Assembly (NCBI GenBank): GCA_020859755.1
Contig: JAJBVP010000081.1
Span: 1-34,238, forward strand
Direction of reading: 5' to 3'
DNA: 34,238 nt
Source of the DNA: Bacteroidales bacterium
GTDB lineage: Bacteria > Bacteroidota > Bacteroidia > Bacteroidales > Muribaculaceae
The notes beneath the pieces are model-generated. The model saw only the letters and a program-made list of their open reading frames with translations, was not told where the DNA came from and did no database searches. This document shows positions 1,824 through 26,569 of this stretch, piece after piece. A program made the position numbers and the translations under genes. Positions within the stretch are counted from its first letter, which is position 1. The number at the start of each line of letters is the position of its first letter.

Positions 1824-2079
1824 AATCCCCCTCACAAGCCACTTTCAAAGGCTATATAAATTCCTCTACAAAATTCGGTTAAACGTGTGATTATTACCAC
1901 CTTAAATTTTGCAAAACACTATATTTTGACTTTGCGCTCTTGACTTTGGGTCGCCACATTTATTTACTTTGCAACAGATAATTTAACGTTGCGACACAAC
2001 ATCTCCTCAACATGCTGTGGCTACCGTGACCTTAACGCCAAGAAAACTAAAAAACAATCAAAACATAGTGAACAGTATC

Positions 2080-5079: not shown

Positions 5080-5094
5080 TCACTGATATTCAAC

Positions 5095-6588: not shown

Positions 6589-6609
6589 TCCTTAAACTAC
6601 TGAGAAGCA

Positions 6610-8103
6610 ATGAAACTATCATATATCGCCTCGGCCGCTATCCTGGCCTTGGGCTTGGGCTGCGCGTCGTGCACCGACAACGACTATATGGAGCTGGACA
6701 AGGGGAGCGACACGTTGACCCTCACCGCCTCCACCACCGAGATCGTGCTTGAGGAATCGGAGTACGCCTCCGACGCTATCGAGCTCTCGTGGAGCACCGG
6801 CACCAACTACGGCACCGGCAACCGTATCCTCTACACCCTGCAACTGGCAGCGGCCGGCACCAACTTCGCCGATCCTGTCACCATCTACGACGGCGAGTCG
6901 CAGGAATACTCGTGGACCCCGATGGTCGACCAGCTCAACGCTTTGGCCATCAACCGCCTGGGCGCCGAGCCTTACGAGGCCTACCAGATTGAGGCCCGAG
7001 TGCTCGCCACCGTAGCGGGAGTGACCACCGACCAAAGCTCGATCGTCACCTTCACCGTCACCCCCTACAAGGCTGTGGCCACCAAGCTTTACCTCATCGG
7101 CGACGCTACCCCCAACGGCTGGAGCGCCGACAACGCCACCGAGATGGCCAAGACCTCAACCGGCATCTTCACCTGGACCGGCAACCTGGCCGCTGGCGAG
7201 TTTAAATTCATCACCACTCTTGGCCAGTTCCTCCCCTCCTACAACAATGACGGCAACGGTGGCCTCGTTTACCGCGACAGCGACGACCAGCCCGACGAGA
7301 AATTCGTCATCACCGAGGCCCACTGCTACAAGGTTGACGTCAACCTCCTTGAGCTTACCATCACGATCACCGAGGTTGAGGGCATCGCCCCGGCTTACAG
7401 CGAGCTTTACTTCGTGGGCGACGTGACGAGCTGGACGTTCTGGGAGATGACCCAGGACCCCTTGGATCCGTTCCTCTTCCGCATCGGCGTATTCTTCACC
7501 GGCGCCAGCGAGTTTAAGTTTGGCACCACCAGCGGCTCGTGGGAGAACATGTACAAGGCCGCCGAGGAGAACGCTCCCTACACCAACACCGAGATGCAGT
7601 TCATCTCGGGCTTCGACCCCGATCCCAAGTGGTATCTCACCGCCTCGGAGGCCAACCAGGCTTACAAGATATGCGTGGATATCCGCACCGACGCCGAGCG
7701 CATGCTCATGGCTCCCTACACCCCCTACACCGAGATGTATCTCGTGGGCGACGCCACCCCCAACGGTTGGGATCTTGGCAACGCCACCGCGATGACCGTC
7801 GACCCCTCCGACGCCAACATCTTCACCTGGAGCGGCTACCTCAACGCCGGCGAGCTGAAATTCTCGGCCGACAAGCAGAGCGACTGGAACGGCGCCTGGT
7901 TCATGGCCGACGAGGAGGGCAAGGTGCCCACCGGCTCGGAAGAGCACACTCTGTTCATCGACAAGACCAACAGCTCTTGCCAGGACCAGTACAAGGACAT
8001 CCTTGTGGGCAACATCGACTACAAGTGGGTGATCGAATCGGCTGGCAACTACACCATTACCCTCAACCAGCTTTACCAGACTGTAACCATCAAAAAACAA
8101 TAA
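6610..8103 (+). CDS. SusE/SusF-like outer membrane glycan-binding lipoprotein
   Basis: N-terminal lipobox-like LGCASCTDNDYMELD; SusE-type Ig-like start; three repeated modules (YLIGDATPNGWSADNATEM..., LYFVGDVTSWTFWEMTQ..., YLVGDATPNGWDLGNATAM...). Confidence 0.88.
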   Translation: MKLSYIASAAILALGLGCASCTDNDYMELDKGSDTLTLTASTTEIVLEESEYASDAIELSWSTGTNYGTGNRILYTLQLAAAGTNFADPVTIYDGESQEYSWTPMVDQLNALAINRLGAEPYEAYQIEARVLATVAGVTTDQSSIVTFTVTPYKAVATKLYLIGDATPNGWSADNATEMAKTSTGIFTWTGNLAAGEFKFITTLGQFLPSYNNDGNGGLVYRDSDDQPDEKFVITEAHCYKVDVNLLELTITITEVEGIAPAYSELYFVGDVTSWTFWEMTQDPLDPFLFRIGVFFTGASEFKFGTTSGSWENMYKAAEENAPYTNTEMQFISGFDPDPKWYLTASEANQAYKICVDIRTDAERMLMAPYTPYTEMYLVGDATPNGWDLGNATAMTVDPSDANIFTWSGYLNAGELKFSADKQSDWNGAWFMADEEGKVPTGSEEHTLFIDKTNSSCQDQYKDILVGNIDYKWVIESAGNYTITLNQLYQTVTIKKQ

Positions 8104-8114
8104 GCTTTACCCAA

Positions 8115-8163
8115 TCGAGAATCCCGGCACTCCCGAAAGTCCCGGAAATCCCGGGATTCTCGA
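8115..8163 (+). promoter_or_regulatory. Long intercistronic hairpin between susE-like and GH66 genes
   Basis: Perfect 13-bp arms TCGAGAATCCCGG / CCGGGATTCTCGA enclosing iterated TCCCG units, followed by AAAAATAAT. Confidence 0.7.
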
Positions 8164-8178
8164 AAAATAATACCAACG

Positions 8179-12097
<3,919 letters not shown>

Positions 12098-12108
12098 CCG
12101 AGCTCTTG

Positions 12109-12152
12109 TGAGGGCCGTCCAAGAGCCGGCCCGCCAAGGCTCCCCATACGCC
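12109..12152 (+). repeat. Dispersed intergenic repeat family B
   Basis: gtgagggccgtccaagagccggcccgccaaggctcccc; close to copies at 13587, 21251 and 26645. Confidence 0.75.
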
Positions 12153-12161
12153 CCTTTCACC

Positions 12162-12207
12162 CTTTAATCCTTTAATCCTTTAAAAATAAAGGAGGATAGG
12201 ATTAAAG
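12162..12207 (+). promoter_or_regulatory. Intercistronic hairpin between GH97 and SusF-like gene
   Basis: CTTTAATCCT ttaa TCCTTTA aaaa TAAAGGA ggat AGGATTAAAG: 10-bp outer and 7-bp inner stems. Confidence 0.65.
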
Positions 12208-12255
12208 AAGCCATCAACCAAAAACCAAAAACCATCAACCAAAAACCCATATACA

Positions 12256-13404
12256 ATGAAAAAGCTTTTACTTTCCACAACCCTATGCCTCAGCGCATTG
12301 GCAGCATCAGCATTCGAGTACAGCGACATCACCAACCTCTACGTGATCGGCGAGGCCGTATCCAGCGGCTGGTCGCAAGCCGACGCCCCTGAAATGACCT
12401 CCAACGGCTCGGGTGTCTTCACCTGGACCGGCACACTCAAAACCGGTCAAGTGAAATTCATCATCGGCCGCGACACCTGGGATTCGCTCGTTTCAGCCGA
12501 CTACGACAACTACGGCATCGTCCTCGACACCCCGATGAACCTCGCTAAGGGCGACGAGGCCGGCGACAACAAGTGGTACAACAACGAGGCTGGCGTTTAC
12601 GTCCTCACCGTCGACCTCAACGCCAAGACCTTGACCGTCAGCGCCGACGCTTCGGCATTTGTCCCCACTGCCTTCTCCATCTCCGGCTCGGCTCTTACTT
12701 GCACCCCCTCCGAGCAGGGTCCCTCGATCTTCAAGTACATGGGCTCGGTGGCAGCCGGCACCTTCACCGTCAAGGCTACCGACGCCGAGGGTAAAGCCCA
12801 GTGGCTTAAGGCTGGCGACAACAACGCCTACACCTACGTAGCGGAGAGCGCTGCTACCGCCTATACCACCGAGGCCATCGCCAAGGCCCAGCTCTTCATC
12901 GACGCCGCATCCCAGACCCTCACCTTGAACGCTTACGAGGCCCCCGCCGGCGTATGGATCGTGGGCTCCGACACCGAGTGGTCGTTCGTCGAGATGACCC
13001 AATCGACCGACGATCCCGACGTTTACGAGTGGACCGGCGCTATCGGCACCTCCAAGGGCACCGAGATCAAGTTCATGACCATCAACAACTTCGACAACGA
13101 CGGCGTGTACGGCATCCACCCCTACTTCAATGGCGAGAACCTGCTGGAAGCCAACTACTTCTGCCAGGGCGGCAACGACAACAAGTGGGCCGTCCCCGAG
13201 GACGCCAATTACAAGCTCAAGGTCAACCATTACCTGCAGACGGTATCTGCCTCCAAGGTGAGCGGCGTCGCCACGGTTGAGGCCAACGACGCAACGGCTC
13301 CTGTCGAATACTACAACCTTCAGGGCATCCGCGTAGCTCAGCCCCAAGCCGGCCAACTCGTGATCCGCCGCCAAGGCACCAACGTCGCTAAAATCATCTT
13401 TTAA
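12256..13404 (+). CDS. SusE/SusF-like secreted glycan-binding protein with sorting-type C-terminus
   Basis: Non-lipoprotein signal peptide (LCLSALAASAFEYS); SusE/F module NLYVIGEAVSSGWSQADAPEMTSNGSGVFTWTG; WIVGSDTEWSFVEMTQ; C-terminus YYNLQGIRVAQPQAGQLVIRRQGTNVAKIIF. Confidence 0.8.
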   Translation: MKKLLLSTTLCLSALAASAFEYSDITNLYVIGEAVSSGWSQADAPEMTSNGSGVFTWTGTLKTGQVKFIIGRDTWDSLVSADYDNYGIVLDTPMNLAKGDEAGDNKWYNNEAGVYVLTVDLNAKTLTVSADASAFVPTAFSISGSALTCTPSEQGPSIFKYMGSVAAGTFTVKATDAEGKAQWLKAGDNNAYTYVAESAATAYTTEAIAKAQLFIDAASQTLTLNAYEAPAGVWIVGSDTEWSFVEMTQSTDDPDVYEWTGAIGTSKGTEIKFMTINNFDNDGVYGIHPYFNGENLLEANYFCQGGNDNKWAVPEDANYKLKVNHYLQTVSASKVSGVATVEANDATAPVEYYNLQGIRVAQPQAGQLVIRRQGTNVAKIIF

Positions 13405-13512
13405 AAATCGACTCCTCTGATTGTTTTATTTGGCAATTTATACTAATCCCAAATCCTGTTAGCTTAGGTGCGATAGCACTAAGGTTCCTATAGATAGTGC
13501 AATTTTTAGGGT

Positions 13513-13549
13513 GCTGCCCGATCTCCCCTCGGAGGTCGGGCAGCCTATT
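13513..13549 (+). terminator. Rho-independent-type terminator after the susC-to-SusF-like operon
   Basis: GCTGCCCGATCTCC cctc GGAGGTCGGGCAGC: 14-bp stem with one G-T pair, followed by CTATTTT. Confidence 0.8.
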
Positions 13550-13586
13550 TTCACGGCCCTCACGAGAAGATGTATCGGCACCCATG

Positions 13587-13642
13587 GTGAGGGCCGGCCA
13601 AGCGCCGGCCCGCCAAGGCTGCGCAGCAGCTTCTCCCCCTTT
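13587..13642 (+). repeat. Dispersed intergenic repeat family B
   Basis: ggtgagggccggccaagcgccggcccgccaaggctgcgcagc. Confidence 0.75.
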
Positions 13643-13768
13643 TAGGGCCTTTTTCCCCACTACTTATTTATACTATTATCAACTTATATTATTCTGATCT
13701 TCATTGTTTTAGCCCGCACGCTACACTATATTTTGGCTATATGGGCGCGGGGAGTTTTTTTCTGATAT

Positions 13769-13776
13769 TACCTTTG
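13769..13776 (+). promoter_or_regulatory. Candidate -7 box for the 1496-aa gene
   Basis: TACCTTTG matches TANNTTTG; 50 nt before ATG at 13827 and downstream of the terminator. Confidence 0.45.
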
Positions 13777-13826
13777 CGGTGGACAAATTTTCACACCGAA
13801 AATCTAACAAAATCTCTACATAGACT

Positions 13827-16800
13827 ATGAATCGTTTAAGACTTAGTTACCTATCTATTCTATCTATCCTCACGCTCGCCGTGTCGCCGTGGTGCGCCTA
13901 TGCGGGCACAGTGTATTTTGACAATACCGACGCTAATTGGAACACGGTGTACGCCCACTATTGGGGGGGCGACACCGGCTCCAGTTGGACCGACGCTTCG
14001 AGCGACGATCCAACGTCGGTCACGGCCCACGGCGTCGCCATGACCCGCATGGGCAACTCCAACCTATGGAAAGTGGATATCGACGACAAGAGCACCAGTC
14101 TGGTGTTCAACAACAATGCCGACGAGCAAACCGTCGACATCGTCGTTGACTCAAGCGAGGCCTCCAACGCCAAATATCGCGCCACTGCAAAAAACACCAA
14201 AGGTAAGTGGACCTACAATTCCGACCCCTACCCCTTGGTAGCCGACTCTCAGTTCAAGCTGTACCTCTTCGGCGACCTCAATTCCTCACAGGATGGCGCC
14301 ATCGTCAAGGACGATTACGTGGCCATCGAGATGACCCGCCAGGTCGACGGCACCTTCACCGCCTCGGGCGTGCAGCTCACCCGCAAGAAACATGACGACT
14401 ACGCCTACGTGTCGTTCTGCTCCACCACTTCGATGGTGATGCACAGCATCGTCGCGTCGTCGCTCGCCGACACCAACACTGGAAACAGCAATGCCGACCG
14501 TTACGGCTCCTCCACAACCGATGAGACCGTCACCTATGGCTCCCCGTCGACCGTGATCGCGCGACTGAAATGGAGCAACCGCACCTCGGCAGGTTACCAC
14601 GACTGGGCACTCGACGCCGGCAAATATAATATCAAGGTAGACCTCACCGACGGGATGGAGGTTACATTCACCCCCGCCAACTCGGTGAACATGCCCCTGA
14701 CCAAAGCCGATTTCGTCAACTCCGACGGCACGCCCCGCGCCCATTACTTCTTGGTGGGCTCGCGCCAGGGCGACTGGCACCTGCAGCCCGAGTGGGAGCT
14801 GGAGCAGCAAAGCAACGGCACGTGGACCATCCCCGGCGGCCGCTTCATCTACCCCGGTTACATCGGAATCGCCAAGGTCGACAATTACTACGACTATACC
14901 TTCCAGCGCTACAAGCTATTCGCCAAGCCCGGCGAGAAGATCCAGGACAAGAGCGACAACGCCTGGTCGGCCATCACACTCTCAGCCGACGGCCTGTCCT
15001 CGCAAGGCACTGTGCACGGCTACATCGATTACCCCGACTTGAGCGACACCTATGGCGACAACACTTGGTTCCCCTCCTCGGACGGTGCTGTGAAATTCAG
15101 CACGGCCAACGCCATGATCCTTTACGCCAACATGACCGACGAGTATCAGGACCCCAAAAACCAAGTTGCCCAAGGCATCAACACGGCCCGCAACTCCAAG
15201 GGCCTGTGGTGTGACAACATCGTCGTGACGCTCGACTCCGACTCCAACCCCGCCGGCATCTCCTTCAGCGGCCTGTCGAAATTCAACGCCAAGGAGTTTA
15301 TCTTCACCCTCGTTGGCGGCGAGATCCACAACGAGCGTATCGACGCGTTGAGCCAAGCCAATCCTGGCGTCTACGACCACCCGCTGTGGGACACCCAATC
15401 GTCCAACGGCTACGGCTGGCACGACGCGTGGGTGCAATACGACGACCAGGGCAACGTCTACCACGACGGCAACGGCGAGTTGATCTACCAGACGGTGTTC
15501 ACCCGCTCGTGGTTCAAGGCTCACCCCAGCTATTTCTACCGCTCCAAGGACAATCTGCTCTATACTTCCGACGACATCACCTTCGTCAACGCCGCAGCTC
15601 TTGACGACCTCGACAACGACCCGTTCAAAAACTTCTACACCTCTCGCCCGGCCAACGGTGACCAGATTGGCGACCTCGAGGCCTTCACCTGGAGCGACGA
15701 CACCTATACCTACACCTTCCCCGAGAAGATGGTCGACAGCAGTGAGGATCAAATCAAGTCGCGCTCTACCGACAAAGGCTGGGAATGCTTCGTGGTAAAG
15801 GACATTTGGGTGTCGGGCGACTACAAGATATGGTCGGGCTGGGGCGGCAACAGCGTGTTCTACGAGTTTGACAACACCTGGGGCAGCGAGTTGCGCTCCT
15901 CCCAGCGCTGGAACCGCGAGAACGGCGGCTCGGCCATCAAAAACAACAACCAATGGACCGGCGGCTTCGACGTCAACTCGTCGGCCGAGGTGGAGGTGTA
16001 CCCCACCTACATCGACGTGGAGAGCGCCAACTTCTACTTCGGATTCGACATGGACGCCAACCGCTGGGTGGAGACCTTCTTCGACCGCATCATCTTCTGG
16101 TACAACGCCGAGGACGGCATTGAGAACGGCGTGCTGCAGTTCATCTCCCAGGCCAACGGCCCCAAGATCCGCGCCTACGAGGTGGAGGGCGATAACCACT
16201 CCATCGAGTACCGGTGGTACATCGACCAGAGCAACGTGGAAGAGGGCACCCTCAACGACAAGGAGATCGCCTCCTACACCATCACCCGCTACCGTGTCAC
16301 CTCGGAGGGCGAGTCGCTCAACGGCGTCACCGAGGAAAATATCGTGCCCGAGGAGAGCAAGAATATCATATCGAAATTCGACCCCGAGACCGGCTTGCTC
16401 ACCTTCATCGACAAAGGCACGGTGACCGATGAGGACGCCGAGGGCGACCTCCCGGCCGGCACCTACCTCTACGTCGTGTCGGTGACCTATTCCGACGGCG
16501 TTACCAAGAGCGCCAAGAGCAACCGCATCACCATCTACGACCCCGACAACGTGGCCGACCCCGATCCCCTGGCCTTCCAGCTCATCGAGCTCACCAAGAA
16601 CCAGGAAGTGACCATCGACGGCACCACCTATACCGACGCCATCGAGTATCTGGCCCCCACCAACGCCTCCACCATCCGCTCGCGTGGCGCGGCCGCTCTC
16701 AACTACCGCACCGACAACGGCACCATGTATATCGTGAGCGCCGGCAAGGACGACTCCTCCATCCAGCTCCACGCCCTCGACGCCACCAAGACCTGGAACC

Positions 16801-18317
16801 TGATCAAGAATCACCCCGAGGCTTACACGTGGACCTCCGACTTCTACGTGCGCTCCCTTACCGAGACAACCTTCAACAACCGCATGAACAACTACCGCCA
16901 AAATGGATTGATCCAGCAGGCGGCCAATCCCGTGCCGGAGCTTACGGTGACCGATTCCAGCGTGTCGCAAGCCGCCGCGTCGACCCTTTCCAAGGTTATC
17001 CAGCAGGGTGACGACGCCGCCAACCCCTCGGGAAAAGGCTACTACGGCTCTATCGTCAAGCGCTCCGGATCCCTGGCCAAGGCCTCGTTCAACGTGGCTA
17101 TGAGCTACACCGTCGACAACCAGGCTCGCAACTCGTCGGCCACCACCATGGGTGCCTCCGTAATGCCCAAGCCCTACAGCATCGCAATGACCGGCTACGA
17201 GGAGACGAAGGAGAATATCGACGGTTTCTCGGGCGAGCTCACGGCATCAGTGCGCGCCGGAGTCAACAACCACTCCGACCCCACCGAGCGCACCCTCACG
17301 TTCAAGGCCGAGGACGTCGACCTGCTCCACCTCAACGCCAAGTTCACCTTGCGGCAGCCAAACGTAAGCCCTGAGATTCTGGCCAAATACGACATCCGTT
17401 ACCAGGTGAACGGCTACAATTACACCGTCATCAACGGTAACAAGTCCACCGAGCGGCTGTTCTCCACCCAATACGTCGACCGCGGTCACACCGCCCTTTC
17501 CGATGGCTATTCCATCACTGTAAGCGACGTCAACCCCCATGGCGACGACAATGTGGATGTCTCCTACACCCCCGACGTATATCCCGGCATCGAGGTGACC
17601 ACCACCACCTATATCGACAAGGACAACTCCACGTCGACCCTCGCCGGCACCTACCACTACACCGACCTGCTGGCCGCCACCCCCAACGTGGTAACCCGCG
17701 GCGAGGCTCCCCAAATCGGTAGCGTACAACTCGAATACACTGTCAACGGCGACCTTGCCAACTGCAACGTGTGGGGATTGAGGAGCTACTCCCAATTCTC
17801 CCACATGGGCACCCACACCGATGTATTCGACGGCGGCGACTCCCCGATGACCCCCAGCCTTTACATGCTTGAGGCTACCGACACCGACGGTGGAAATTAT
17901 GAGGCCTACTACCTGCTTTCCACCATGCAATCCAACGCCACCGTCACCATGGACACCCCGCGATGGTTCGCCACCCAAATGCCCTCGACCGTGACCAATC
18001 CCACGCTCTACTTCACCCCGGTGTACATCTTCGCCTACAACCCCACGGTATCTTGCAGCGGATTGACCCCAGCCACCTCCATCTCGGGTAAAGCCGACGC
18101 CACTTCGGTAAGCTTTATCGGTGTCACCGGCACCCCCGGCACAGGCACATCCGCCAACCCCGTCTACACTGGCGTGGAGGAGATCACCATAGACTCCCTC
18201 ACGGGCTATGTCCTCTACAACCTTCAGGGTCAGCGCGTCCTCAACCCCGTCCGTGGCCAGGTCTACCTTGCAGTTCTTAACGGCCATCACGCAGCCAAGA
18301 AAGTAATCTTCCAATAG
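13827..18317 (+). CDS. Large secreted multidomain protein, probable carbohydrate-binding (CBM26-like N-terminus), no recognised catalytic domain
   Basis: Signal peptide; TVYFDNTDANWNTVYAHYWGG is starch-binding-module-like; very long extracellular-type sequence; C-terminus VEEITIDSLTGYVLYNLQGQRVLNPVRGQVYLAVLNGHHAAKKVIFQ is sorting-domain-like. Confidence 0.7.
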   Translation: MNRLRLSYLSILSILTLAVSPWCAYAGTVYFDNTDANWNTVYAHYWGGDTGSSWTDASSDDPTSVTAHGVAMTRMGNSNLWKVDIDDKSTSLVFNNNADEQTVDIVVDSSEASNAKYRATAKNTKGKWTYNSDPYPLVADSQFKLYLFGDLNSSQDGAIVKDDYVAIEMTRQVDGTFTASGVQLTRKKHDDYAYVSFCSTTSMVMHSIVASSLADTNTGNSNADRYGSSTTDETVTYGSPSTVIARLKWSNRTSAGYHDWALDAGKYNIKVDLTDGMEVTFTPANSVNMPLTKADFVNSDGTPRAHYFLVGSRQGDWHLQPEWELEQQSNGTWTIPGGRFIYPGYIGIAKVDNYYDYTFQRYKLFAKPGEKIQDKSDNAWSAITLSADGLSSQGTVHGYIDYPDLSDTYGDNTWFPSSDGAVKFSTANAMILYANMTDEYQDPKNQVAQGINTARNSKGLWCDNIVVTLDSDSNPAGISFSGLSKFNAKEFIFTLVGGEIHNERIDALSQANPGVYDHPLWDTQSSNGYGWHDAWVQYDDQGNVYHDGNGELIYQTVFTRSWFKAHPSYFYRSKDNLLYTSDDITFVNAAALDDLDNDPFKNFYTSRPANGDQIGDLEAFTWSDDTYTYTFPEKMVDSSEDQIKSRSTDKGWECFVVKDIWVSGDYKIWSGWGGNSVFYEFDNTWGSELRSSQRWNRENGGSAIKNNNQWTGGFDVNSSAEVEVYPTYIDVESANFYFGFDMDANRWVETFFDRIIFWYNAEDGIENGVLQFISQANGPKIRAYEVEGDNHSIEYRWYIDQSNVEEGTLNDKEIASYTITRYRVTSEGESLNGVTEENIVPEESKNIISKFDPETGLLTFIDKGTVTDEDAEGDLPAGTYLYVVSVTYSDGVTKSAKSNRITIYDPDNVADPDPLAFQLIELTKNQEVTIDGTTYTDAIEYLAPTNASTIRSRGAAALNYRTDNGTMYIVSAGKDDSSIQLHALDATKTWNLIKNHPEAYTWTSDFYVRSLTETTFNNRMNNYRQNGLIQQAANPVPELTVTDSSVSQAAASTLSKVIQQGDDAANPSGKGYYGSIVKRSGSLAKASFNVAMSYTVDNQARNSSATTMGASVMPKPYSIAMTGYEETKENIDGFSGELTASVRAGVNNHSDPTERTLTFKAEDVDLLHLNAKFTLRQPNVSPEILAKYDIRYQVNGYNYTVINGNKSTERLFSTQYVDRGHTALSDGYSITVSDVNPHGDDNVDVSYTPDVYPGIEVTTTTYIDKDNSTSTLAGTYHYTDLLAATPNVVTRGEAPQIGSVQLEYTVNGDLANCNVWGLRSYSQFSHMGTHTDVFDGGDSPMTPSLYMLEATDTDGGNYEAYYLLSTMQSNATVTMDTPRWFATQMPSTVTNPTLYFTPVYIFAYNPTVSCSGLTPATSISGKADATSVSFIGVTGTPGTGTSANPVYTGVEEITIDSLTGYVLYNLQGQRVLNPVRGQVYLAVLNGHHAAKKVIFQ

Positions 18318-18388
18318 CAAACAAGGAGCGTGGGCGCCCCGCCCGCGCAATTAGCGAACAAGGAGCGTGGGCGCCCCCGCCCGCTCCA
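18314..18388 (+). repeat. Dispersed intergenic repeat family A, two tandem copies
   Basis: caaacaaggagcgtgggcgccccgcccgcgcaatt then gaacaaggagcgtgggcgcccccgcccgctcc; the first copy begins at the stop codon of the 1496-aa gene. Confidence 0.85.
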
Positions 18389-18421
18389 GGAACAAGATAA
18401 TTAAGTTAGTAGTTCTATATC

Positions 18422-20251
18422 ATGAAGCCTATCTTCACCATCATTGCCGCCGCTGGAGCCCTCGTGGCCCCAGCCGCGGTCGTGGCGGCCGACTTCGTCT
18501 CCACAGCATTCGGAATCGTCCACATTCCAGCCTCGGCCTCCGAGTATGAGGCCATGTCTATCGACCTTAGCACCGACAAGTGTGCATATGCCCCCGGCGA
18601 GGCCGTCTCGTTCACCGCCTCGGCAGCCCCGGCTGGCGCTCGCGTAAGGTATCTCAACGGCGCCGATGTCGTGGCCGATGTCGAGTTATCCTCCAAAAAG
18701 TGGCAATGGACTCCTCCAACCACCGATTTTCAAGGCTACCTCGCTGAGGTATACGCAACAGCCGGCGACGGATCCGAGACCGTTCTCGGCACTATCGCCG
18801 TCGATGTCTCCAGCGACTGGACTATGTATCCCCGATACGGCTTCGTGGCCACTTTCGACGACACAAAGCTCGCCGACGGCGTGGTCGAAAGCGAAATGGA
18901 CTACCTCAACCGTTGCCACATCAACGGCGTGCAGTTCCAGGATTGGCACTGGAAGCACCACTGGCCCCTGGCCGGCACCCGCGACAACCCCATGGACGTT
19001 TACACCGATATCGCCAACCGCACGGTATACGCATCGGTGGTCAAGAAGTACATCGAGGAGCAACACAAGCACGGCATGAAAGCCATGTTCTACAACCTCG
19101 CTTTCGGCGCCCTCGACGGCGCTGAGACCGACTACGACGAGGACGGCTGGAGCGTCGAGGAAACCAAGTATCTGTACACCGACCGCAACCACACCACCCG
19201 CGATTACCACGCTCTCCCCTCGGGTTGGAAAAGCAACATCTACCTCACCCAGCCCGGCAACTACTTCTGGATCGAGTGGATGAAAAAGCGCAACGACGAC
19301 GTATACGCCAACTTCGACTTCGACGGCTACCAGATCGACCAGCTCGGCGACCGTGGCACCCGTTACGACTACTGGGGCGAATATGTCGACCTCCCCACCA
19401 ATTACGTCACCTTCATCAACGGCATGAAGGAAAAGCACCCCGGAAAGCGCCTGGTGATGAACGCCGTAAGCTCGTTCGGCGGCGACAAGATCGTTGCCAC
19501 GGGTAAGGTCGACTTCGCCTATAACGAGACCTGGGATTCCGAGAAGTACTACCTCGACCTGCGCAACATCATCGGCAACAACGACGGTGCCAGCAACTAC
19601 GGCGTGCGCACGGTCTTCGCATCCTACCTCAACTACAACCGCGCCGACCGCGGCGACGGCTACATGAACACTCCCGGCGTGTTGCTCACCGATGCCGTCA
19701 TGATAGCCATCGGCGGCAACCACCTCGAGCTGGGCGACCATATGCTTTCCCGCGAATACTTCCCCGCTTCGCCCCTCAAGATGAGCGACGAGCTTCGCGA
19801 GGCCATGATCCGCTATTACGACTTCCAGACGGCTTACCAGCAACTCCTTCGCGGCACCCTTTCAACCAAGAATGAGATTTGGGAACCCGTCACCTCGCTG
19901 GCCTCGGCCTCCGATACCCGCGTCAACAACTGGCCACCACAGACGGGCGGTATCACCGTCTACGAGCGCGCCACGGCCGACGGCGGCAAGAAGATCTATC
20001 ACCTGCTGAACTTCTCCACGGCCGACAATGTGGAATGGTGCGACACCGAGGCAGTGCGCCCCGAGCCCCGCGAAATGACCAGTCTGCCTATACAGATAGC
20101 CTGCGGTTCGGGAGCCAAAAAGGTGTGGACAGCCTCGCCCGACTACCTCGGCGGCGCCCCCCAGGAGCTCGCCTTTCAATCCACCAGCGACGGCGTGCAA
20201 GTCACCGTTCCCGCCCTTAAATACTTATCAATGATTGTAGTAGAATTCTGA
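18422..20251 (+). CDS. Second GH66-family dextranase-like protein (non-lipoprotein signal peptide)
   Basis: MYPRYGFVATFDDTKLADGV, HINGVQFQDWHWKHHWPLAGTRDN, NFDFDGYQIDQLGDRG, VDFAYNETWDSEKYY; paralogous to 8179-9984. Confidence 0.88.
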   Translation: MKPIFTIIAAAGALVAPAAVVAADFVSTAFGIVHIPASASEYEAMSIDLSTDKCAYAPGEAVSFTASAAPAGARVRYLNGADVVADVELSSKKWQWTPPTTDFQGYLAEVYATAGDGSETVLGTIAVDVSSDWTMYPRYGFVATFDDTKLADGVVESEMDYLNRCHINGVQFQDWHWKHHWPLAGTRDNPMDVYTDIANRTVYASVVKKYIEEQHKHGMKAMFYNLAFGALDGAETDYDEDGWSVEETKYLYTDRNHTTRDYHALPSGWKSNIYLTQPGNYFWIEWMKKRNDDVYANFDFDGYQIDQLGDRGTRYDYWGEYVDLPTNYVTFINGMKEKHPGKRLVMNAVSSFGGDKIVATGKVDFAYNETWDSEKYYLDLRNIIGNNDGASNYGVRTVFASYLNYNRADRGDGYMNTPGVLLTDAVMIAIGGNHLELGDHMLSREYFPASPLKMSDELREAMIRYYDFQTAYQQLLRGTLSTKNEIWEPVTSLASASDTRVNNWPPQTGGITVYERATADGGKKIYHLLNFSTADNVEWCDTEAVRPEPREMTSLPIQIACGSGAKKVWTASPDYLGGAPQELAFQSTSDGVQVTVPALKYLSMIVVEF

Positions 20252-21317: not shown

Positions 21318-24300
21318 TTACATGGGCTTGATCATGGACTCGATAAAGTCGACCTCCTCGTCGCTCAACCCATACTTATCGTATAGTTGCCGATCAATCC
21401 CATCCACCTCCTTTTTCCAGTCAATCTCCTCATTGCTAGCGAAATCCTGCATGGGAACAAAAGCAAAGCATTCCTTGGTAACATTCACCGATGTTACCCC
21501 CTGTCGGAGAAGATAACGAGCAAATTTTGTTCGCAAATACTTTTTATAATTATTTGCTTCGTTCTCAGTTTCAAACGCAGCGGTATCTATATAGGTTTCG
21601 GTATTGATTTCGCCAGGGACTAAGATCTTAGGTTCTGTTATGACCCGATAACCCTCCCCGGGTTTTACACTCATCTCACCGTTACTAGGAACGAATCTTC
21701 CTATAATGATTTTATAGGAATCTACTAAATCATTACCTTTTTTGATCTCAGAACGGTTAATTTTAGACCATCCTTGACTAGTGAGTATTCTAACATCTCC
21801 ATTCTCGCTCCCACGAAAATATGTTCGAAAGCCAAAGGGATTAATGGGCAGTACTAGCTCATTAAGGAATTTGGGTTCATGATCGAGTATTTTCCTAAGA
21901 ATCGGTATTGCAGCATTCGACCGGATGAGCACTCCAAATTCGTTAAGATACCTAGATTCTTCTTTATTTTTAAGTGCGACATTATTTATGATAGTGCACG
22001 GGCCTTTGTAATCATTATTCCACAAAAACACACATAATCCCCCTGCAATATCTACTGCGGGGAAAAGATCCTTGCTCAATTCGTAATCTGCTAACTTCCG
22101 AAGATGAGTATCTTGCATCATAGAAGAGCGGAAGTCATCAAGACCGCGGCCCCCTGCATACCATCTAGCAGGCATAATCATCGAAACATAGGTAGGAGAC
22201 AAAGATCTAGCCAAATCCACAAAGTGTTGATATACAGGCACTGCTCCGCGGTCAGTACCGCCATCCATGACTTGGTATGGTGGGTTGCCGACGATGGCTT
22301 TGAATTTGAGGTCTTTCTTTTCTTGGGTTTTCATGTCGGTGGGGTTGATGTCCCAGAAGTTGTAGCCACCGCGCAGGCAGGTGACAACATGGGACGGGTT
22401 CTTTTTAACGTCCTCGATCAGATCCTTGGTGGCGTACCAAGAGCGCACGTGGTGGGCACCTCCCTGATAGCCGAGCAGCACACGGCGGGTGATCATGGCT
22501 GCCATCTCGCTCTTGCACAGTACATACACGTTGCAGCCAACAACCTCGCGCCATAATGCTTGTTCCTCCTCGGGGGTGTCACTGGGGAAAAGGCTTGACT
22601 GCTTGCGCTGACGGAAGATAGTATAAGTGATCCAAAGGGGATACAGGCCCGACTTGGAGTTGATTTCGAGCACTTTTAGGTCGGGGGTATTGAGCCAATC
22701 GTCGGTGACACCCTCCTGATTCACCAGCTGGGGCTCCTCGAGGTGCACCCGATGGGTGGCGGAGTCGAAAAAGTCGTAGCCGCCGATTGTGTCGGCAAGG
22801 TGCATGTTCACCACTCGCCAGGGGGTGAGGACGGTTTCCTTGTCGGGGAAACGGAAATTGGCAATCATCTCGGCGATGGCCTTGGTGCGCTCGGTCACCG
22901 AGAGTGAGTCGGCGGCAATCGTACGGTCGCGCACCATCTTGGCGGCCGATGAGAAAATCTCCTCATTGAGAACTCCGGCATCGAGCAGCGATTCCAGCTC
23001 CTTTCGCCCCACCCCCTTGGGCATAAACACCTCGAGCGACTCGTCGTCAACGATTTCGAGCAGCCGGTGCAAGGTGATATCCTCGTCTGGGGGAATATCG
23101 GCTCCAAACACGAGCATTGGCATGCGCACGTAGATATTGGTCAACACGGCCAAGGCCTGGCGCGCGGGGTCGCTCTTTTTGGAGCCCTTTTTGGAGGTTG
23201 ATGGCGTTTGTTTGCCGTTGCCTGGTTTGCCTGTGCCTTTCCCGGGGTTGGGCTTGTCCTTGGGGAAGGTGGAGCTAAGGGTGATTGTGCCCGAGCCTGA
23301 AGGATCGTCAAGCACGTGGCCGGCCTTCTGCATCTTGAGGCCAACGTCCTGAATGGCTTTGCGCTGCTTCTCGGTGAGTGTGCCCAGGTCGACAAACATG
23401 CGCTTGTCGCGAAAACCGCGACGTATCACGTGGTCGGAGTAGGCGCGGCCTATCGACTGCATGAGGGTGACGGTGTCGTAATTTCGCTCACGCGAGCCCT
23501 CATGGGCGATAATGGCGTAAAAACGCAGGACATCCTTATAAGCCTTCTCGGCGGAGACCTGGGTCATGGGGATGCCGTCAATGTCGGCCACTTGAGAAGG
23601 ATGGGATTGATGGTGGACCATGTCGTTGATCACCATAAGGATACGGTCGGGAGCGAAGTCGAAAGCGTAGCACACGGCCTTTTTGGGCATCACGTTGCGT
23701 CGAGTGGCCGTTTGGGCGCGGAAGATTGTCTGGAGATAGAATGCGGCGCTGATTTTCTCGCCTCCGCTGAGCATAAACACGCCGCTCCATTCTGGGATGC
23801 TCACGCCCGTGGTCAGTCGTCCGCATGAGAGGGTGATGGTCTTGGGGTTATTGGCGATGGCGGTTTGTACCTTCCTAAGGGCGTCCTTTTCAAGTTTGTC
23901 CTGTTTTTTGGCATCGATATCGTCTTGGGCCAACTCGTCGCCCTCACCTGCCACATTCACCACGGTGTATTGCTTGAGTGTGGGATGGCTTTGTATCATT
24001 TTGCTCAGGGCCGCGGCTGCTTTTACGCCGGGCACCACCCATAGGGTGTGGCTCAAGGAATAGCGAAACGCATCGTTGCTATAAGGGTAGCACGTTTCGG
24101 GCTTGCTTTCATCACACAGCAAGTCGAGGAAACGGCGCACATCCTTCTCGTGGACAAATTGATCGTCCTCCACGCGGAAGAATTCGGCGAAGTTGAAGTA
24201 ATCGTTGTTTTGGTCAGGCTGATAGTCAGCGAATTCGTCGAGCTTGTAGGTGTGCACCTCCAGACGGGGGAGGTCGGCATATGGATTGGGCTCGGTGGGA

Positions 24301-25391
24301 TGGTTGTGCTCCCAATCGGCCTTGGCCTGTTGCTCCATCTCGTAGGTCCACGAGTAAATCTCGTCCTCCGAGAAATCGGCGAGCATGTTGTAAGGTGTGC
24401 CTGAGAGGTAGAGGGTTCGGATTTGAGGGTTGGCGCTTTGGATGGAGCGGATCACCTGTTGTCCCAGGGCTGTACGAGTACCCTCGTGGGCCTCATCCAC
24501 GATCAGGATATCCCAAGGGGTGGTAAACACCTCTTTATTCTTCTTAAAAGTGCCTTTAGCATCCCAAGAGCCTCGAAGATCCTGAATAGAGGCGAAATAG
24601 ATATAATGGGCATCGCTTTTTTGAGCCATTTCCTCGGCCGTGGCGATTGGTTTTACTCGAGTCGGGTCGAAGTTTTTGCCATCCTCCTTGTTGTGGAAAG
24701 AATAATACCAATTTGCTTCAAAAGGCAACAGGTCGAAATCCTTGAACCAACCGTCCCTCACCGCAGGGCGATGGGTGATAATCAGGGCACGCTTGGGAGC
24801 CATTTTGCGCAATACCTCGAGCGTGCACAATGTCTTACCGAACCGCATCTTGGCATGCCAAAGCATCTTGCCAGGGTGTTGGAATCGGTTGAGAGTGCGC
24901 GAAATAGCGTCGTGCTGCTCGTCACGGAAGGTGATTTTGGGCTTGGTGACGGGGGTAATTTTCTTGTGGTCCTCGGGATTGAGGGATTGGCGCTCCTCTT
25001 TGACAGCCTGAATGGCTAATTTGGCGGTTTCTAAGTCGACGTAATACCACTCCTGAGGCTGGGAATCCAAGCCTGGGAACTCCACCTTGGAATATCCACT
25101 GGCCTCCAATACAGCATGTACACGCTTGTCATTGAAAACCATGTAATCGTCTCCCTTTTTATAGTAGGCAATTTCGGTATGGAGCAATTGATAGGGAACA
25201 GCCGCGGTAACCACCTCTTCATTGATACGCTTTCTGGCTGCTTCGTTCAACTCCATACAATTGGGCTCCAACCACTGGCCGATTTTGGCGTCCACGGTGG
25301 TTTGCCCAATTTTAAGCATGCCTTTGTGTCCTTCGTCAGGGATGGCGAAGACGTAGATTAAGACGTATTTGAAGGTGGCGATAGTAGTCAT
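21318..25391 (-). CDS. Fused nuclease-helicase-methylase restriction-modification protein
   Basis: N-terminus LIYVFAIPDEGHKGMLKIGQTT...AARKRI...DKRVHAVLEASGY (GIY-YIG/T5orf172-like); helicase motifs KMRFGKT, LIVDEAHEG, LYLSGTPYNML, GRLTTGVSIPEWSGVFML, QTIFRAQT; methylase motif IV FKAIVGNPPYQVMDGG; C-terminal TRD-like region. Confidence 0.85.
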   Translation of the reverse strand: MTTIATFKYVLIYVFAIPDEGHKGMLKIGQTTVDAKIGQWLEPNCMELNEAARKRINEEVVTAAVPYQLLHTEIAYYKKGDDYMVFNDKRVHAVLEASGYSKVEFPGLDSQPQEWYYVDLETAKLAIQAVKEERQSLNPEDHKKITPVTKPKITFRDEQHDAISRTLNRFQHPGKMLWHAKMRFGKTLCTLEVLRKMAPKRALIITHRPAVRDGWFKDFDLLPFEANWYYSFHNKEDGKNFDPTRVKPIATAEEMAQKSDAHYIYFASIQDLRGSWDAKGTFKKNKEVFTTPWDILIVDEAHEGTRTALGQQVIRSIQSANPQIRTLYLSGTPYNMLADFSEDEIYSWTYEMEQQAKADWEHNHPTEPNPYADLPRLEVHTYKLDEFADYQPDQNNDYFNFAEFFRVEDDQFVHEKDVRRFLDLLCDESKPETCYPYSNDAFRYSLSHTLWVVPGVKAAAALSKMIQSHPTLKQYTVVNVAGEGDELAQDDIDAKKQDKLEKDALRKVQTAIANNPKTITLSCGRLTTGVSIPEWSGVFMLSGGEKISAAFYLQTIFRAQTATRRNVMPKKAVCYAFDFAPDRILMVINDMVHHQSHPSQVADIDGIPMTQVSAEKAYKDVLRFYAIIAHEGSRERNYDTVTLMQSIGRAYSDHVIRRGFRDKRMFVDLGTLTEKQRKAIQDVGLKMQKAGHVLDDPSGSGTITLSSTFPKDKPNPGKGTGKPGNGKQTPSTSKKGSKKSDPARQALAVLTNIYVRMPMLVFGADIPPDEDITLHRLLEIVDDESLEVFMPKGVGRKELESLLDAGVLNEEIFSSAAKMVRDRTIAADSLSVTERTKAIAEMIANFRFPDKETVLTPWRVVNMHLADTIGGYDFFDSATHRVHLEEPQLVNQEGVTDDWLNTPDLKVLEINSKSGLYPLWITYTIFRQRKQSSLFPSDTPEEEQALWREVVGCNVYVLCKSEMAAMITRRVLLGYQGGAHHVRSWYATKDLIEDVKKNPSHVVTCLRGGYNFWDINPTDMKTQEKKDLKFKAIVGNPPYQVMDGGTDRGAVPVYQHFVDLARSLSPTYVSMIMPARWYAGGRGLDDFRSSMMQDTHLRKLADYELSKDLFPAVDIAGGLCVFLWNNDYKGPCTIINNVALKNKEESRYLNEFGVLIRSNAAIPILRKILDHEPKFLNELVLPINPFGFRTYFRGSENGDVRILTSQGWSKINRSEIKKGNDLVDSYKIIIGRFVPSNGEMSVKPGEGYRVITEPKILVPGEINTETYIDTAAFETENEANNYKKYLRTKFARYLLRQGVTSVNVTKECFAFVPMQDFASNEEIDWKKEVDGIDRQLYDKYGLSDEEVDFIESMIKPM

Positions 25392-25397
25392 TGAGGA

Positions 25398-26336
25398 TTA
25401 TTTATTTAGGAGAGAGACAAAGTAGATTTCGCGATGCTTGCGGCCGTGCTTGGTGTCGCCCCATTGCCTGATTTTACAGAAGACGGAGTTATCGTTTAGT
25501 CCCATAGGGTCAAAGGTTTGGCGCGGGGACATTATCACCTGGCCGGTTAAGCCATCCATCTGCCATAGGTTCCAAGAGATTATCTGTGCGATTAGGCGTT
25601 TTACATTGGTGCGAAGTTTACCCTCGTTTGGGAATTGTATGTCATGGTACTCTTTAAGAGTATCCATCAAGGCAAAGCGGGCGAGCAGCAAGTTGTCACC
25701 TTGCCATTCGAATCCATACGTGTTCTGTAAGGCAATTCTAGCCCAGCGCAGCCACTCCTTGTGGACTTTCTCGTTTTCGCCGACGATGCGGAGCTTGCGG
25801 TCGAGCAAACCTACGCGCTCCTCCACGGGGATAATCTCGCCTGTGACCGCATCGTAGCGGCTTGCCAGATAAGGGGCCTCGCCGCATGTGATCTCCAGAC
25901 GGGTGTCGCGCACATAATCGTGCCAAGTTTTCCCCTCGGGGAATTCTATATTGTTGTGATTAGTCACCCAAGCGTGGTCGGAGAACTCTTTATTGAACAC
26001 CTCGGAGCGTCCGAACCAAGCCTCGTCAATAAGGTTGTTCTGGGCGTTGCACACCCATGCGGGGGTGAACACCTCGGCCTTGTCGCGTACGCGCGATTTC
26101 TGGGCTTGGGCGCTCTTGAGGGAGCGGGGCTGGATGAGCATACGGTTGGCGCCGGTTATTTTCTCGACCGTGATCTCGTCGGCGGCGTGGTAACCGTCGC
26201 CCCTGGAAGCGTAATCCTCGGTGCCCCACAGGATGTTGCGTCCAGTCGTGTGGTCGAGCAACAAGGTCTCCAGCACTTCACGGCCGTGTCGGAGAAAATC
26301 GTTTTCCTGGATATCTATTTTGGCGCTGATAGGCAT
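25398..26336 (-). CDS. Restriction-modification partner subunit (methylase AdoMet-half-like, 'subunit M'-like)
   Basis: AEVFTPAWVCNAQNNLID (TPxxV motif typical of gamma N6-adenine MTases), RLEITCGEAPYLASRYD, YGFEWQGDNLLLARFALM; stop codon 6 nt from the helicase ATG. Start likely MPISAKID. Confidence 0.7.
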   Translation of the reverse strand: MPISAKIDIQENDFLRHGREVLETLLLDHTTGRNILWGTEDYASRGDGYHAADEITVEKITGANRMLIQPRSLKSAQAQKSRVRDKAEVFTPAWVCNAQNNLIDEAWFGRSEVFNKEFSDHAWVTNHNNIEFPEGKTWHDYVRDTRLEITCGEAPYLASRYDAVTGEIIPVEERVGLLDRKLRIVGENEKVHKEWLRWARIALQNTYGFEWQGDNLLLARFALMDTLKEYHDIQFPNEGKLRTNVKRLIAQIISWNLWQMDGLTGQVIMSPRQTFDPMGLNDNSVFCKIRQWGDTKHGRKHREIYFVSLLNK

Positions 26337-26491: not shown

Positions 26492-26497
26492 GAAGGG

Positions 26498-26569
26498 TAT
26501 CCCCGTGGGGAGTCGAACCCCAATCGTCGGAACCGGAATCCGAAATTCTATCCATTGAACTACGGAGAC
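26498..26569 (-). tRNA. tRNA-Arg (anticodon CCG)
   Basis: Minus strand GTCTCCG TA GTTC AATGGATA GAAT T TCGGA TTCCGGT TCCGA CGAT TGGGG TTCGACT CCCCA CGGGGAT A; full cloverleaf, no encoded CCA. Confidence 0.93.

What the first reader, a model, noticed from the sequence alone, without database searches (positions are those of the whole stretch)
21318..26336. Two-gene R-M-like system with GIY-YIG-like nuclease, SF2 helicase and a methylase apparently split across both genes
The 1357-aa protein reads N to C as a GIY-YIG/T5orf172-like segment (LIYVFAIPDEGHKGMLKIGQTT), an SF2 helicase (KMRFGKT, DEAH, QTIFRAQT), an NPPYQV adenine-methylase catalytic motif and a TRD-like tail. No DPxxGxG motif I was seen in it. 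The adjacent small gene instead carries FTPAWVCNAQNN, LEITCGEAPYLASRYD and YGFEWQGDNLLLAR, which look like motif X / I / II equivalents with no NPPY. This recalls Type ISP enzymes (nuclease-helicase-MTase-TRD in one chain), but with a different nuclease and a trans-split methylase. Architecture is read from motifs; the split is inference.
Basis: partly seen in the sequence, partly recalled or inferred. Interest (0 to 1): 0.8.

Follow-up and report, generated by a model that had tools for sequence, protein, structure and literature searches.

The report
Methyltransferase split across two restriction proteins
A gut bacterium carries a two-gene DNA-defence system in which the enzyme that marks the cell's own DNA appears to be built from halves made by two different genes, while the DNA-cutting protein carries a second, altered copy of one half, and relatives seem to swap the other half by flipping DNA.

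Summary
Gene 1 (312 aa) carries adenine-methyltransferase motifs X, I, II and III and has no NPPY. Gene 2 (1357 aa) is a GIY-YIG-type (T5orf172) nuclease, an SF2 helicase and an NPPY-plus-TRD catalytic half.

The strongest evidence is natural. Three loci fuse the small protein directly to the catalytic half in canonical motif order. A Fusobacterium phage fuses only these two halves, and a Tenacibaculum phage encodes them as two genes, one starting at NPPY. AlphaFold gives the fusion a complete m6A-methyltransferase fold (pLDDT 88, pTM 0.86).

In it the motif I glycine is an almost universal lysine and the motif II acid is lost. It also folds with the catalytic half. It stays with the nuclease-helicase and is absent from the two phage solo methylases.

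My reading: small+catalytic methylates, K-half+catalytic guides restriction. The split is well supported; the half-swap is inferred. In relatives the catalytic half is exchanged exactly at NPPY, at three loci beside repeats and a tyrosine recombinase. Nothing has been tested biochemically.

The parts
21318..25391 (-). Large gene, 1357 aa: GIY-YIG-type nuclease, SF2 helicase, K-half, catalytic half + TRD
25008..25391 (-). Nuclease domain (residues ~1-128), T5orf172 family; conserved I12 Y13 K27 G29 R55 D88 H92 E114
23247..25007 (-). SF2 helicase/translocase domain (residues ~129-715): GKT, DEAH, SGT, QTIFRAQ
22362..23186 (-). K-half (residues ~736-1010): second SAM-half-like segment with variant motifs X', I' and II'
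22638..22670 (-). Variant motif I' LEINSKSGLYP (residues 908-918), lysine in place of the first motif-I glycine
21321..22316 (-). Catalytic half (residues ~1026-1357): motif IV onward plus TRD; exchangeable cassette in relatives
22272..22286 (-). Motif IV NPPYQ (residues 1036-1040); position of the exchange boundary in relatives
25398..26336 (-). Small gene, 312 aa: SAM-binding half (motifs X, I, II, III) lacking motif IV
25866..25898 (-). Motif I of the small protein, LEITCGEAPYL (residues 147-157)
25677..25718 (-). Motif II of the small protein, YGFEWQGDNLLLAR (residues 207-220)
25551..25577 (-). Motif III-like SWNLWQMDG of the small protein (residues 254-262)
26496..26569 (-). tRNA-Arg (CCG) directly upstream of the operon; not part of the enzyme, possible landing site

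Best explanation
This is an ATP-dependent restriction-modification system whose m6A methyltransferase is split in trans. The small protein is the SAM-binding half (motifs X, I, II, III; strands b1-b3). The C-terminal third of the large protein is the catalytic half (NPPY onward; b4-b7) plus the target-recognition domain. Together they make the modification enzyme. The large protein also carries a GIY-YIG-type (T5orf172) nuclease, an SF2 translocase and a second, altered SAM-half (K-half) that can complete the same fold in cis but has lost SAM-binding signatures. Inferred mechanism: with the K-half docked, the catalytic/TRD half acts as a methylation-blind reader that recognises unmodified sites and hands them to the helicase-nuclease. 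With the small protein docked instead, the same TRD directs methylation. Specificity evolves by swapping the whole catalytic-TRD half at the NPPY codons. Shown here: the architecture, the natural fusions/fissions, both predicted folds, the motif losses and the exchange boundary. Inferred: that the two halves are alternatives, that the K-half does not bind SAM, and every enzymatic activity.
For: (1) Natural fusions in canonical order X-I-II-III-IV-TRD: L153, L155 and L156 fuse small to catalytic half in one ORF, with a separate nuclease-helicase-K-half gene that has no NPPY. (2) Phage FNU4 (630 aa) fuses only small + catalytic half; phage PTm1 encodes them as gp279 and gp277, the latter beginning MKFDIIVGNPPYQ. 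(3) Pfam Eco57I spans the junction in the FNU4 fusion (residues 178-371, 5e-25) and in L155 (215-401, 1.2e-14). (4) AlphaFold of the L155 fusion: pLDDT 88.3, pTM 0.86, b1 at motif I and b4 at NPPY; PDB matches CamA 8e-11, BrxX/PglX 4e-10, BpuSI 5e-9. (5) AlphaFold of window K-half + catalytic half: pLDDT 85.0, pTM 0.84, CamA 2e-14, LlaBIII 2e-9. (6) Motif I: 111 of 115 K-halves match the lysine form and 134 of 140 small proteins the glycine form, with no crossover; the motif II acid is present in 131 of 131 small proteins and in none of 98 K-halves. (7) A sister three-gene family has a ~230-aa small partner, in L228 with textbook motif I EPACGTGNF and a match to only the SAM-half of Pfam MmeI_Mtase (31 bits, profile 14-81/259). 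(8) Of 25 related genomes with a substantial K-half/catalytic-half match, 23 also have a small gene; the two exceptions run off contig ends. (9) Nuclease.
Against: No two-chain model of the window's own pair could be run; the fusion modelled is a distant homologue (window small protein 41% identical to it). The K-half plus catalytic half already makes a complete fold in cis, so the small protein must displace or re-site it, and no intermediate was seen. Profile-profile comparison of small against K-half+catalytic found no homology; the equivalence rests on motif order, fusions, predicted folds and the sister family. In the chimera of the window's own small + catalytic half the Eco57I score rose only from 63.8 to 65.5 bits. 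The motif II pattern used for K-halves allowed E but not D. A variant motif I does not prove loss of SAM binding. Bacteroidota dominate the sample.
Confidence: 0.72

Rival explanations
1. The large protein is a self-sufficient methylase (K-half + catalytic half bind SAM despite the lysine), and the small protein is an accessory, for example a regulator or a DNA-binding partner.
For: K-half + catalytic half fold as one complete m6A-MTase-like domain matching CamA, PglX and LlaBIII. The K-half keeps an acidic residue and the second glycine of motif I. The sister K-half scores 33 bits with Pfam N6_Mtase.
Against: The motif I glycine is replaced in 111 of 115 and the motif II acid is absent in 98 of 98. 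Phage solo methylases discard the K-half and keep small + catalytic half. Fusions join small, not the K-half, to the catalytic half of the modification gene. The small gene keeps its SAM motifs and is nearly always present.
Confidence: 0.13
2. The two SAM-halves act together in one 2:1 assembly rather than as alternatives: the K-half is a permanent scaffold (as METTL14 is to METTL3), while the small protein supplies SAM to a catalytic half of a second large subunit in a dimer.
For: The K-half is retained in nearly every restriction-bearing locus. Type I and Type III enzymes use paired methylase units (general knowledge).
Against: Class II/III loci have only one catalytic half per M gene and a K-half on the R gene, which does not by itself demand a dimer. 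No interface data.
Confidence: 0.25
3. One reading: the large protein has no SAM-half of its own and the split is the whole story.
For: No DPxxGxG in the large protein; no NPPY in the small one.
Against: Motifs X', I' and II' at 856-960, conserved and folding as b1-b3.
Confidence: 0.04
4. The system methylates but does not cut DNA at unmodified sites in the classic way (for example an exclusion system like BREX, or a nuclease aimed at something else).
For: The closest folds include BREX PglX. GIY-YIG-family nucleases have varied roles. No restriction assay exists.
Against: The GIY-YIG-type nuclease and translocase are fused in one chain with the reader module, as in Type I/ISP enzymes. No BREX component model matched either window protein in PADLOC.
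Confidence: 0.1

Closest known systems
Type ISP restriction-modification enzymes (LlaGI, LlaBIII)
   Same: Same order of functions: nuclease, SF2 translocase, gamma-class m6A MTase, C-terminal TRD (PMC3874165, PMC4872093). LlaBIII is a Foldseek match of both models.
   Different: The nuclease is T5orf172/GIY-YIG-type, not Mrr-like. The MTase is completed in trans by a second gene, and the in-cis SAM-half is altered. Two to three genes, not a single polypeptide.
Type IIG enzymes and their MTases (Eco57I, BpuSI, MmeI)
   Same: Pfam Eco57I domain; BpuSI and MmeI fold matches. PADLOC calls the large protein REase_MTase_IIG.
   Different: Type IIG has no helicase and carries a complete MTase in one chain.
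BREX PglX/BrxX and CamA orphan m6A MTases
   Same: Best Foldseek matches for both the fused small+catalytic model and the K-half+catalytic model.
   Different: Both are single-chain enzymes, with no nuclease-helicase in the chain.
Naturally split C5 methyltransferases M.AquI and M.EcoHK31I
   Same: Natural precedents, known to me and named in PMC3404938 (found, not read in full), for one DNA methyltransferase made from two polypeptides.
   Different: Those are m5C enzymes. Here the enzyme is predicted m6A, split between motif III and IV, and a second SAM-half exists on the restriction protein.
Phase-variable Type I hsdS inversion systems
   Same: Specificity changed by DNA inversion (PMC4948785; Prevotella hsdS inversion in PMC5608340).
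   Different: The exchanged piece is the catalytic half plus TRD of the methylase, with the crossover at the codons of the catalytic motif NPPY.

Membership tests
Type ISP R-M | N-terminal Mrr-like PD-(D/E/Q)xK nuclease | tested here: not met
   The N-terminus matches T5orf172 (20.4 bits, cut-off 20) and 28 of 35 homologues do, best 1.9e-12; no Mrr family among the matches to the N-terminus
Type ISP R-M | SF2 helicase-like translocase domain | tested here: met
   ResIII 4.8e-14 at residues 152-334; conserved GKT, DEAH and QxxFRxQ
Type ISP R-M | Complete gamma-MTase with SAM-binding motif I in the same single chain | tested here: not met
   A complete fold in cis exists, but motif I carries Lys for Gly and the motif II acid is lost; the G-type half is encoded separately
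Type ISP R-M | C-terminal target recognition domain | tested here: met
   Model residues beyond the MTase core align with TRD-bearing CamA, PglX and LlaBIII; the region is highly variable. Inferred from fold match
Type ISP R-M | ATP-dependent translocation and two-site cleavage | not testable with these tools
   biochemical assay needed
GIY-YIG nuclease superfamily (T5orf172 branch) | Family profile match and conserved GIY / (Y/K)IG / R / E signature | tested here: met
   Pfam T5orf172 and MUG113; I12-Y13, K27-G29, R55 and E114 invariant or nearly so in 35 homologues
GIY-YIG nuclease superfamily (T5orf172 branch) | Three-dimensional fold and nuclease activity | not tested
gamma-class m6A MTase (N12 class) | Order X-I-II-III-IV-TRD with NPPY | tested here: met
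   Met across the two chains; in one chain in L153, L155, L156 and FNU4
gamma-class m6A MTase (N12 class) | m6A activity | not testable with these tools
   needs SMRT or nanopore methylome
Type IIG R-M (PADLOC/NCBI label) | Nuclease and MTase in one chain without a helicase, cleavage at a fixed distance | tested here: not met
   An SF2 helicase is present and the MTase is completed by a second gene; the cleavage distance could not be tested
BREX (PglX) | Neighbouring brxC/pglZ/brxL-type genes | tested here: not met
   The operon has two genes between GH66/PUL genes and tRNA-Arg/UDG; no BREX component in PADLOC for either protein; not every neighbouring ORF was scanned

The most novel reading that the evidence does not exclude
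A restriction-modification enzyme with interchangeable Rossmann halves. One catalytic-TRD half pairs either with a SAM-binding half (to methylate) or with a SAM-dead twin tethered to the helicase-nuclease (to restrict), so that the choice of partner half, not a separate specificity subunit, sets the mode. In some lineages a site-specific recombinase flips whole catalytic halves at the NPPY codons, changing both modes' specificity in one step.
Probability: 0.35. Interest if true: 0.9.

Novelty: new variant of a known kind. Interest (0 to 1): 0.75.

Why it matters
Natural splits of DNA methyltransferases known to me are few and in m5C enzymes. A widespread split m6A enzyme (576 relatives in one capped genome scan) that keeps two competing versions of one half would be a new way to couple protection and attack to one target-recognition domain. 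It bears on an open question in restriction biology, how single-TRD ATP-dependent enzymes decide between methylating and cutting. It also makes clear, cheap predictions (methylation needs both genes; the phage halves alone suffice), and suggests a modular scaffold for split or reprogrammable adenine methylation. Annotation pipelines currently label the small protein a stand-alone Type II methyltransferase or 'restriction endonuclease subunit M', which this analysis says is half an enzyme.

Tried and rejected
PDB sequence searches with both proteins and with profiles gave only weak RadD helicase hits and nothing for the methylase or nuclease. hhalign of small against K-half+catalytic found nothing meaningful, so homology was argued from fusions, motifs, folds and the sister family instead. 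A first mixed alignment (A4) misplaced NPPY in catalytic-only rows and was dropped for A7. The idea that the window itself holds spare catalytic cassettes was tested and rejected: the own genome has only two catalytic halves, one per system. tRNA-directed integration leaving a tRNA-end repeat was looked for; only weak flanking repeats were found. Partner catalytic halves for solo small genes in phage contigs were sought and mostly not found (records may be fragments). Literature: ten searches of open-access papers found no description of this split. The closest was the Prevotella intermedia Pin17FIII Type IIG pair, where one gene alone gave GGYGAB methylation (PMC5608340); its relation to this family was not tested. 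A viral scan with the FNU4 fusion found nothing further.
Full report
What is there. On the minus strand of a contig from a Bacteroidales genome (family of Duncaniella/Muribaculaceae, judged from matching contigs), two genes in one frame, separated by a stop codon plus 6 nt, sit between a polysaccharide-use locus (SusC/D/E-like, GH66) and tRNA-Arg. The small gene is 25398-26336 (312 aa) and the large gene 21318-25391 (1357 aa).

Large protein. Residues 1-128 match Pfam T5orf172 (GIY-YIG superfamily) just above the gathering score. Twenty-eight of 35 homologous N-termini match it, best 1.9e-12, and 20 match the related MUG113. I-Y, K-(I/V)-G, R, D..H and E are invariant or nearly so. Residues 129-715 are an SF2 helicase (ResIII 4.8e-14). 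Residues 736-1010 are what I call the K-half. Residues 1026-1357 are the catalytic half with NPPY plus the TRD.

Small protein. Across 20 homologues the motifs AEVFTP (X), E.TCGE.P (I), Y..E..GD (II) and N..QMDG (III) are invariant or nearly so. There is no NPPY. Public annotation calls relatives 'restriction endonuclease subunit M', and PADLOC has a model of the family as MTase_II.

The split is shown by natural rearrangements. HMMs for five modules (nuclease, helicase, K-half, catalytic half, small) were run over all fetched loci, then counted after removing known duplicates. Seventy-nine loci are small | nuclease-helicase-K-catalytic, like the window. L153, L155 and L156 have small-catalytic in one ORF (678-728 aa), followed by nuclease-helicase-K-half with no NPPY. 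L152, L161 and L032 (the last interrupted by an IS) have three genes, small | catalytic | nuclease-helicase-K. Fusobacterium phage FNU4 has only the small-catalytic fusion. Tenacibaculum phage PTm1 has gp279 (small) and gp277, whose first residues are MKFDIIVGNPPYQ. Pfam Eco57I runs across the fusion joint in FNU4 (178-371, 88.9 bits) and in L155 (215-401).

Structure. AlphaFold2 of the L155 fusion (51-row alignment) gives pLDDT 88.3 and pTM 0.86. Strands follow motif I (153-156), motif II (214-218), motif III (263-265) and NPPY (330-335). PDB matches are m6A methyltransferases: CamA 8.4e-11, BrxX/PglX, BpuSI, MmeI, LlaBIII/LlaGI, M.BseCI, M.TaqI. TM-scores are modest (about 0.25-0.5 on the query), as expected for distant multi-domain relatives.

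The K-half. The window's K-half + catalytic half also models as a complete MTase (pLDDT 85.0, pTM 0.84), matching CamA (1.9e-14), PglX, BpuSI, LlaBIII and TaqI. So the large protein is not simply missing a half. But the K-half differs consistently. Motif I is [DE]xx(S/C/T/V/M)KxGx(Y/F) in 111 of 115, against the G-type form in 134 of 140 small proteins, and neither class contains the other's form. The motif II acid is E/D in 131 of 131 small proteins found by the pattern and C/A/P/T in 98 of 98 K-halves (the K-half pattern allowed E but not D). By general knowledge of class I methyltransferases these positions contact SAM, so loss of SAM binding is likely but not shown. The K-half travels with the nuclease-helicase even when the catalytic half does not, and is absent from the two phage solo methylases. 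L141 instead has the K-half on the catalytic gene.

Sister family. More distant loci (L228-L234, L236) encode a ~230-270-aa small partner, a ~510-560-aa K-half-catalytic protein and a nuclease-helicase of mostly ~830-980 aa. In L228 and L229 the small partner has a textbook motif I, EPACGTGNF; in L228 it matches only positions 14-81 of the 259-position MmeI_Mtase model (31.0 bits, cut-off 27). The K-half of its partner (DPVCKSGVF) matches the corresponding part of N6_Mtase (33.2 bits, cut-off 20.4). Both are therefore forms of the same SAM-half, one canonical and one with lysine.

Linkage. Among 147 related genomes, 25 have a substantial K-half/catalytic match and 23 of those also have a small gene. 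The two without have matches running off contig ends.

Exchange at NPPY. Pairs of large proteins 90-97% identical up to NPPY are often only 20-46% identical after it (L068/L070 97.0 vs 45.8; L097/L121 94.6 vs 27.0; L058/L060 91.8 vs 20.2). Over 1552 pairs with 60-99.5% identity before NPPY the median after it is 32% (pairs are not independent). In 17 chosen pairs mean identity is 88% in the five residues before NPPYQ, 100% in NPPYQ, then 42% and 22% in the next two blocks of five. The window against its sibling L063 shows the same drop. TRD variation is normal in R-M systems; what is unusual is that the boundary is the catalytic motif, so half the enzyme core goes with the TRD.

Possible inversion. 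L059, L069 and L102 carry one or two extra catalytic halves next to the large gene, some inverted. Repeats lie on the NPPY codons: in L059 an inverted pair of 33 nt at 97% between two spares, in L069 an inverted pair of 25 nt at 96% between the spare cassette and the large gene's own NPPY. In L102 the spares share the core sequence with the large gene. Two spares begin with a stop codon just before the repeat, so they look silent. All three loci have an adjacent tyrosine recombinase (Phage_integrase 4e-28 to 4e-25). This suggests phase-variable specificity. No inversion was observed directly, and the window's genome has no spare cassette.

Mechanism. I think the small protein completes the catalytic half to methylate. 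The K-half completes the same catalytic half, without SAM, to read sites for the translocase and nuclease. Both dock as b1-b3 in the models, so they should be mutually exclusive on one catalytic half; the models were made separately and no coordinates could be superposed. I put about 0.85 on the trans split itself, 0.6 on the K-half being unable to bind SAM, and 0.35 on the full half-swap mechanism.

Known or new. It works like a Type ISP enzyme but fails two defining features (Mrr nuclease; complete SAM-competent MTase in one chain). The proteins are already catalogued as putative Type II/IIG R-M and are common (576 relatives in one capped scan). The split, the second half and the NPPY exchange were not found in the open-access literature searched; REBASE and subscription papers could not be searched.

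Noticed in passing
L059:11937-13991, L069:1868-5000, L102:11965-14985: Spare catalytic-half cassettes with repeats on the NPPY codons beside a tyrosine recombinase: a probable invertible specificity switch.
   Followed up: partly
L151, L157-L160, L162, L164-L166, L168, L169: Phage contigs with a solo small (SAM) half and, in most, no detectable catalytic half in the record; could be a fragment effect, a diverged partner, or a phage protein that borrows the host's catalytic half.
   Followed up: partly
L228-L234, L236: Sister three-gene family: ~230-270-aa SAM half (EPACGTGNF in L228, L229), ~510-560-aa K-half-catalytic protein, GIY-YIG-helicase of mostly ~830-980 aa.
   Followed up: partly
G000:C283 (L039:1869-6879): The same genome holds a second, diverged copy of the whole two-gene system (small 59% identical over the matched region).
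   Followed up: yes
window 21084-21108/26597-26621 and 21274-21295/26669-26690: Imperfect inverted and direct repeats flank the R-M operon plus tRNA-Arg; the sibling species keeps tRNA-Arg and UDG (L248) while its 86%-similar system lies on another contig, suggesting movement.
   Followed up: partly
L069:2977-4017: A YhcG-type PDDEXK nuclease gene (PF06250/PF17761) lies between the spare cassette and the large gene.
   Followed up: no
L172:5905-7887: A small-catalytic reading frame interrupted by one in-frame stop codon, which could be a recoded stop, a real split or an error.
   Followed up: no
L032:8089-9273: An IS256 element lies between the small and catalytic genes of a Bifidobacterium plasmid; its left flank still carries the NPPY start of a catalytic half.
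   Followed up: no
window 2017-20251: Polysaccharide-use locus with SusC/SusD/SusE-like genes, a CBM26 protein and a GH66 enzyme.
   Followed up: no
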